Program-made: the position numbers and the translations under genes | Shown: positions 8,531-9,207 of the stretch, piece after piece | How the letters are laid out: every line of letters begins with the position of its first letter | How positions within the stretch are numbered: the first letter of the stretch is position 1 | Source: Vibrio quintilis | GTDB taxonomy: Bacteria > Pseudomonadota > Gammaproteobacteria > Enterobacterales > Vibrionaceae | Direction: 5' to 3' | NCBI RefSeq assembly: GCF_024529975.1 | Contig: NZ_AP024897.1 | Span: 1,178,001-1,242,000, forward strand | DNA length: 64,000 bases | Notes under the pieces: model-generated | What the model saw: only the letters and a program-made list of their open reading frames with translations | What the model was told of the DNA's origin: nothing | Database searches by the model: none

Positions 8531-8803
8531 ATGAAACCGGGAATTCACCCTGAGTATCGGACTGTGGTCTTTCATGACACCAGTATCGATGAGTATTTTT
8601 TGATTGGGTCAACTTTGCAGACAGACCGAACGATTGAGTGGGAAGACGGACAAACTTATCCTTATTTCACGATTGAAGTGTCTTCAAAATCTCATCCGTT
8701 TTACACCGGCAGGCAGCGTGTGGTGCATCAGGAAGGCCGGATTGCCAACTTCAACCGCCGCTTTGGTCAGATGGGAATAAAACGGACAGGAGATAAGTCA
8801 TGA
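8531..8803 (+). CDS. rpmE2: Type B (zinc-independent) 50S ribosomal protein L31
   Basis: This 90-aa protein starts MKPGIHPEYR and lacks the CxxC zinc ligands of standard L31, as expected for the type B paralogue made under zinc limitation to free zinc from ribosomes. Diagnostic segments are YPYFTIEVSSKSHPFYTG and RFGQMG. The start is set by AGAGAGGAGAG upstream, and a Zur-like box precedes it. The stop overlaps the L36B start codon (ATGA), indicating translational coupling. Confidence 0.92.
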   Translation: MKPGIHPEYRTVVFHDTSIDEYFLIGSTLQTDRTIEWEDGQTYPYFTIEVSSKSHPFYTGRQRVVHQEGRIANFNRRFGQMGIKRTGDKS

Positions 8804-9207
8804 AAGTACTGAGTTCATTAAAAAGTGCCAAACAGCGTCACCGCGATTGCCAGGTGGTGAAGCGCCGGGGACGGGTGTATACCCAAACAACCTGAAGATG
8901 CAGGTTTCAGTGAGATTTGTCAGGCTCTGAGACAAGGCACTGATTTGAAGACATAGTCATTCTACGTTGAAAATCAGTAACGCCGTATCAGAGCCTGACA
9001 AACTCACCCGCAGGGCGTGAGCTGAAAGGCACATTTCTGCGTCAAGAGAATTTGAAAGGTGGGTACATTCCTGCATTCCCTTTCCTTGAACTGTACCTTT
9101 CGGCTGCACGCTGAATCCTGCATCTTCAGGTTGCTTGGGTATATGTGATTTGTAAATCAAATCCGCGTTTGAAAGCCGTTCAGGGAAAGACGAAGAAGAA
9201 AAAATAA
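8800..9207 (+). pseudogene. rpmJ2: Type B ribosomal protein L36 gene split by a MITE insertion
   Basis: The gene begins at 8800 as MKVLSSLKSAKQRHRDCQ and runs to the Tyr of GRVY at 8878-8880. The rest, VICKSNPRLKAVQGKTKKKK and a stop, resumes in frame terms at 9145-9207. Between them lies a 262-bp repeat element flanked by TA. Joining the two parts at one TA restores an intact L36B of about 47 aa. As it stands, translation adds four codons from the element (TQTT) and stops at 8895 after 31 aa, losing the conserved C-terminal half, so the product is probably non-functional. This is an independent loss from the neighbouring intact L31B. Confidence 0.9.
8880..9141. repeat. Full-length MITE-like element (262 bp) inserted in rpmJ2
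   Basis: Ends are TACCCAAACAACCTG and CAGGTTGCTTGGGTA, inverted copies of each other, flanked by duplicated TA (8878-8879 and 9142-9143). Inside is a second inverted repeat: TTTGTCAGGCTCTGA near 8917 and TCAGAGCCTGACAAA near 8988. No transposase is encoded, so movement would need an enzyme in trans. TA duplication is typical of IS630/Tc1-mariner-mobilised elements. Part of it recurs at 13502-13575 and 28853-28943. Confidence 0.88.

What the first reader, a model, noticed from the sequence alone, without database searches (positions are those of the whole stretch)
8800..9207. Zinc-free L36B gene cleanly interrupted by a repeat element with TA duplication
The two halves of rpmJ2 flank a 262-bp element. 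Removing the element and one TA rebuilds a normal L36B. The Zur-like box and rpmE2 stay intact, so the cell keeps L31B but probably lost L36B. This gives a firm definition of the element's ends and target site, and a case of partial loss of the zinc-sparing ribosome response.
Basis: partly seen in the sequence, partly recalled or inferred. Interest (0 to 1): 0.7.

Follow-up and report, generated by a model that had tools for sequence, protein, structure and literature searches.

The report
ERIC-like element splits zinc-free L36B
In this Vibrio-group genome a small repeated mobile element has jumped into the gene for a zinc-free ribosomal protein, breaking it while its zinc-regulated partner gene stays intact; the event is real but of a familiar kind.

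Summary
rpmJ2 (zinc-free L36B), overlapping rpmE2 (L31B), is split by a 262-bp element at 8880-9141 with TA on both sides. The halves match Pfam L36 positions 1-24 and 23-38. The nearest relative found, G061, has the gene uninterrupted at the same TA; a second copy of the element also has an empty TA site in G061. The only other L36 gene found in the genome is the zinc type. L31B without intact L36B looks exceptional: no clear second case among 227 genomes of the genus, while 15 have two or more L36 but one L31 match (hand count). The element is one of 29 near-full copies of an ERIC-like MITE: TATACCC...GGGTATA ends, TA target, ends like E. coli ERIC. The insertion is ordinary MITE inactivation; the covarying fold is the more interesting part. 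Loss of function and any effect on ribosomes are inferred.

The parts
8425..8447 (+). Zur-like palindrome upstream of rpmE2 (core TGTTATGTTATAACA)
   Evidence: 18 of 23 to a recalled Zur consensus; the same core upstream of rpmE2 in G061. Binding not tested.
8531..8803 (+). rpmE2, zinc-free L31B, intact
   Evidence: Pfam PF01197, 6.5e-26
8800..8877 (+). rpmJ2 5' part, codons 1-26 of L36B
   Evidence: Pfam PF00444 positions 1-24
8878..8879 (+). TA, first copy of the duplicated target
   Evidence: one TA at this place in G061
8880..9141 (+). 262-bp ERIC-like MITE
   Evidence: 29 near-full copies in the genome; empty sites
8878..8910 (+). left terminal inverted repeat (TA included)
9111..9143 (-). 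right terminal inverted repeat (TA included)
8893..8895 (+). TGA that ends the interrupted rpmJ2 frame (31-residue product)
8910..9007 (.). arm 1 of the conserved fold
   Evidence: alignment columns 33-131
9014..9112 (.). arm 2 of the conserved fold
   Evidence: alignment columns 138-238
9142..9143 (+). TA, second copy of the duplicated target
9142..9207 (+). rpmJ2 3' part with its stop codon
   Evidence: Pfam PF00444 positions 23-38

Best explanation
An ERIC-like non-autonomous element (MITE) with many copies in this genome transposed into a TA inside rpmJ2 and duplicated it. Translation of rpmJ2 now ends five codons past the 26 native ones (TGA at 8893), giving a 31-residue product that lacks the C-terminal part of L36, so L36B is lost. 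rpmE2 and the Zur-like box are untouched. Under zinc shortage the cell should still make zinc-free L31B but must rely on zinc-type L36A. Shown: the insertion, both halves, empty sites in a relative, the copies, no other L36B found. Inferred: movement by a transposase acting in trans, loss of function, the physiological result.
For: Halves meet in the L36 profile. Uninterrupted gene at the same TA in G061 and halves adjacent in 66 of 66 other loci compared. Second empty TA site for another copy. 29 near-full copies. Only other L36 is zinc type. 15 of 18 differences between the halves and G061 lie in synonymous codons, so the gene has hardly decayed and the event is probably recent.
Against: No partner transposase was found (three IS630-type loci without the ends). 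Expression, ribosome content and other strains of the species were not examined. The assembly could lack a further L36B gene.
Confidence: 0.93

Rival explanations
1. The insertion persists because of an effect on rpmE2: as a strongly folded 3' extension of the rpmE2 message it changes mRNA stability and so L31B output, with loss of L36B as a side effect.
For: Very stable fold on both strands. ERIC elements at gene 3' ends in Yersinia enterocolitica alter transcript levels through an RNase E site (PMC10969869, passage).
Against: No expression data here. It does not compete with the insertion itself, only with the view that it is neutral.
Confidence: 0.12
2. The 31-residue product, or the two parts together, still work as L36B.
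For: The 5' part keeps 26 well-conserved native residues.
Against: Five stops stand in frame inside the element, and the 3' part has no start of its own in the listing.
Confidence: 0.03
3. Assembly artefact: a repeat wrongly placed in the gene.
For: The element is a high-copy repeat, where assemblies can go wrong.
Against: Three contigs, 100% complete; both junctions clean, with a TA duplication that fits the relative's site.
Confidence: 0.02

Closest known systems
ERIC / RU-1 elements of Enterobacteriaceae and Vibrionaceae
   Same: TATACCC...GGGTATA ends, TA target duplication, folded imperfect palindrome, no long gene, many copies; ends identical at 17 of 26 and 18 of 27 positions to E. coli RU-1 (RU-1 sequence and TA duplication from PMC2759123, passages).
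   Different: 262-266 bp with two arms against 127 bp for RU-1; no interior similarity was established. It lies inside a gene, which PMC10969869 says is atypical but reported (passage).
Rfam V_AS5 (RF02818)
   Same: The terminal stem aligns end to end.
   Different: 20.8 bits against a gathering score of 96; about 196 bases of the element fall where the model has 58 unshown positions. Better but also sub-cut-off matches lie elsewhere in this genome (best 41.8 bits).
rpmE2-rpmJ2 (ykgMO) zinc-sparing operon
   Same: Gene order, overlapping genes, Zur-like box, L31B and L36B sequences (operon and Zur control from PMC9825181 and PMC13343924, passages).
   Different: The second gene is interrupted.

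Membership tests
MITE (non-autonomous TIR element) | Terminal inverted repeats | tested here: met
   33 nt, 94% complementary
MITE (non-autonomous TIR element) | Target-site duplication | tested here: met
   TA at two empty sites
MITE (non-autonomous TIR element) | Short, many copies, no transposase gene | tested here: met
   29 near-full copies; longest listed ORF overlapping it, 67 aa, has no Pfam match
MITE (non-autonomous TIR element) | Autonomous partner with the same ends | tested here: inconclusive
   Only three IS630-type loci checked, none with the ends; other families not checked
ERIC | TATACCC...GGGTATA ends and TA duplication | tested here: met
ERIC | Subterminal sequence related to ERIC | tested here: inconclusive
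   17 of 26 and 18 of 27; about 0.7% of shuffles that keep the 7-nt end do as well
ERIC | About 127 bp with the ERIC core | tested here: not met
   266 bp with ends; two-armed interior. Hence 'ERIC-like', not ERIC
Rfam V_AS5 | Score at or above the gathering score | tested here: not met
   20.8 against 96 bits
L36B (C- L36) | L36 profile match and L36B-like sequence without the zinc-type CRNC motif | tested here: met
   Both parts match PF00444; L36A of this genome has CRNC, the L36B parts resemble relatives' L36B
L36B (C- L36) | Full-length product encoded | tested here: not met
   Stop at 8893-8895

The most novel reading that the evidence does not exclude
The 266-bp repeat is a genus-wide family whose two-armed fold is itself under selection, either as transcribed RNA or as the folded single strand that is mobilised; in rpmJ2 it caps the rpmE2 message with a structured end and uncouples L31B from L36B.
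Probability: 0.2. Interest if true: 0.6.

Novelty: new member of a known kind. Interest (0 to 1): 0.35.

Why it matters
It is a natural genotype with L31B but no intact L36B, a state with no other clear case among the 227 genomes of the genus examined. It could separate what the two zinc-free proteins do: E. coli work assigns repression of L31 mainly to L31p (PMC9825181, passages), and in Neisseria RpmE2 slows growth (PMC13343924, passages). The exact junctions and the covarying fold also give clean material for asking how ERIC-like elements move, which PMC2759123 (2007) called not elucidated (passage).

Tried and rejected
An autonomous partner was sought only among IS630-type (DDE_3) transposases: three loci, none with the end motif, one lone GGGTATA in L175. 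The phage collection held no match to the element; four plasmid records matched, one over the full length at 67.5% (Photobacterium). Whether arm 2 is a copy of arm 1: not supported (47 of 500 shuffles as good on the same strand, 449 of 500 on the reverse). Rfam matches MIR533 and mir-465 lie far below their gathering scores and were taken as chance matches to a palindrome. At gathering threshold the whole window gave only tmRNA. RNA or DNA as the folded form: on pairs predicted for both strands, G-U against A-C cells are 22 to 0 in arm 1 and 8 to 20 in arm 2, so no single strand is favoured (Fisher p 0.0002 on pairs, which are not independent).

A text search for the end sequence together with Vibrio found no paper. 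The paper on ERIC divergence that the review cites (Zo 2011) is not held, so I cannot say that this 266-bp form is unpublished. In one search the L31B comparison was made without alignment and is not used. Of the 29 near-full copies, 11 have an open frame of 80 aa or more crossing an edge; I did not judge whether these are interrupted genes.

Full report
What is there. The window lies in a 5.85-Mb, three-contig genome (G000, C1:1178001-1242000). I take the genus to be Vibrio because the best named L31B matches are from Vibrio species; the tool does not name the genome. rpmE2 (8531-8803) is intact and overlaps the start of rpmJ2 (8800). rpmJ2 is read for 26 codons, then meets TA, the 262-bp element 8880-9141, a second TA, and the rest of the gene. 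The open frame ends at TGA 8893-8895. The insert with one TA is 264 bp, a multiple of three, but the frame through it holds five stops.

Proof of insertion. In G061, the nearest relative by this region (82% identity, next best 76%), the gene is uninterrupted and reads GGTCTATGTGATTTG across the site. The two parts of L36B were adjacent in 66 of 66 other loci: 37 of the 80 loci, and 29 of the 30 loci, the thirtieth being the window itself (some species may be in both sets). A second copy of the element (L022) has its empty site in G061: TATGA, TA, element, TA, AAAAGC against TATGATAAAAAGC. Two sites thus give the same ends and the same TA duplication.

Other L36 genes. The genome has three L36 matches: the two parts, and one full gene at C1:3730721 that encodes the zinc-type protein (CRNC, then C and H). 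A second intact rpmJ2 was not found in this assembly.

How unusual the state is. In 227 genomes of the genus, G000 included (counted by hand from the tables), 153 have two or more L31 matches. Of the 152 besides G000, 150 have two or more L36 matches. The other two, G199 (80% complete) and G208 (95%), have one L36 match; their DNA match runs into the L36B 5' part, so L36B is probably present and the other gene missing from the assembly, but I did not read those loci. Of the 74 genomes with one L31 match, 57 have one L36 match, 15 have two or more, and two incomplete genomes have none. Pfam counts do not tell zinc-type from zinc-free copies, so these are proxies. A smaller set of 36 relatives of the same genus gave the same picture.

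The element. One search lists 29 near-full copies (261-268 bp, 90-100% identity, this one included) and shorter pieces. In these 29 the left end is exactly TATACCC in 27 and the right end GGGTATA in 26. In the genus 80 of 227 genomes match, G000 included (in which at most three candidates per genome were scored): 87% in G061, 86% in G175, mostly 66-75% over the full length elsewhere, some only in part. The ends resemble E. coli RU-1/ERIC (17 of 26 and 18 of 27; about 0.7% of shuffles keeping the 7-nt end do as well) and the terminal stem of Rfam V_AS5, far below its cut-off. V_AS5 has three sub-cut-off matches elsewhere in this genome. The review PMC10969869 (passages) counts ERIC of Enterobacteriaceae and Vibrionaceae as MITEs and notes that intragenic cases are reported. 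PMC2759123 (passages) reports an RU-1 variant repeated 28 times in V. cholerae.

Fold. Either strand folds into a terminal stem with two arms (-136.9 and -143.0 kcal/mol; 0 of 200 shuffles as low each). From 49 extracted copies I aligned 22: 5 from this genome and 17 from 17 others; left out were 25 further own copies, one of them the same element fetched twice, and two partial ones, L220 and L222. RNAalifold gives 91 pairs, 52 with a compensatory case. Leaving out the terminal stem, which transposition alone could keep alike, 95.9% of 1449 cells pair, 44 of 66 pairs change on both sides, and 278 cells are double changes, against 84.1 (sd 7.6) in shuffles and 24-55 when partners are slid. The structure came from the same alignment and the sequences are related, so the percentage paired is inflated; the double changes are harder to explain that way. 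Selection on the fold is one reading. Templated repair of imperfect palindromes, which copies one side of an arm onto the other, is another (recalled, not tested). The G-U against A-C comparison points to opposite strands in the two arms and is unexplained.

Consequences. L31B and the Zur-like box remain. Loss of L36B follows from the broken frame; its effect is unknown. In E. coli the L31 switch rests mainly on L31p (PMC9825181, passages). In gonococcus, loss of both zinc-free proteins improved growth when zinc was scarce (PMC13343924, passages). The loss may therefore be neutral or even favourable. Against G061, 15 of 18 differences in 135 compared bases of rpmJ2 lie in synonymous codons, so the gene has hardly decayed and the event is probably recent.

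Verdict. It is a well-defined case of insertional inactivation by a known kind of element. What raises it a little is the rare state with L31B alone and the covarying two-armed fold.

Noticed in passing
4126-4165 and 26861-26900: Two 40-bp palindromes made of the element's two end motifs alone, facing each other; minimal mobile units or deletion remnants.
   Followed up: no
window as a whole: Twelve end motifs of the element (up to 4 substitutions) stand in these 64 kb, denser than the genome's 374 in 5.85 Mb found with up to 3 mismatches.
   Followed up: no
9861-10115 (- strand): Fragment of an IS66-type transposase just downstream (PF03050, 3.9e-05).
   Followed up: no
8910-9112: G-U wobbles prevail over A-C mismatches in arm 1 (22 to 0 cells) and the reverse in arm 2 (8 to 20), as if the arms were constrained on opposite strands.
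   Followed up: partly
L226 (G000 C2:1459444-1459567): A V_AS5-like copy (41.8 bits, below cut-off) whose middle looks, from recall, like the classic ERIC core.
   Followed up: no
60705-61071 (- strand): tmRNA gene (RF00023).
   Followed up: no
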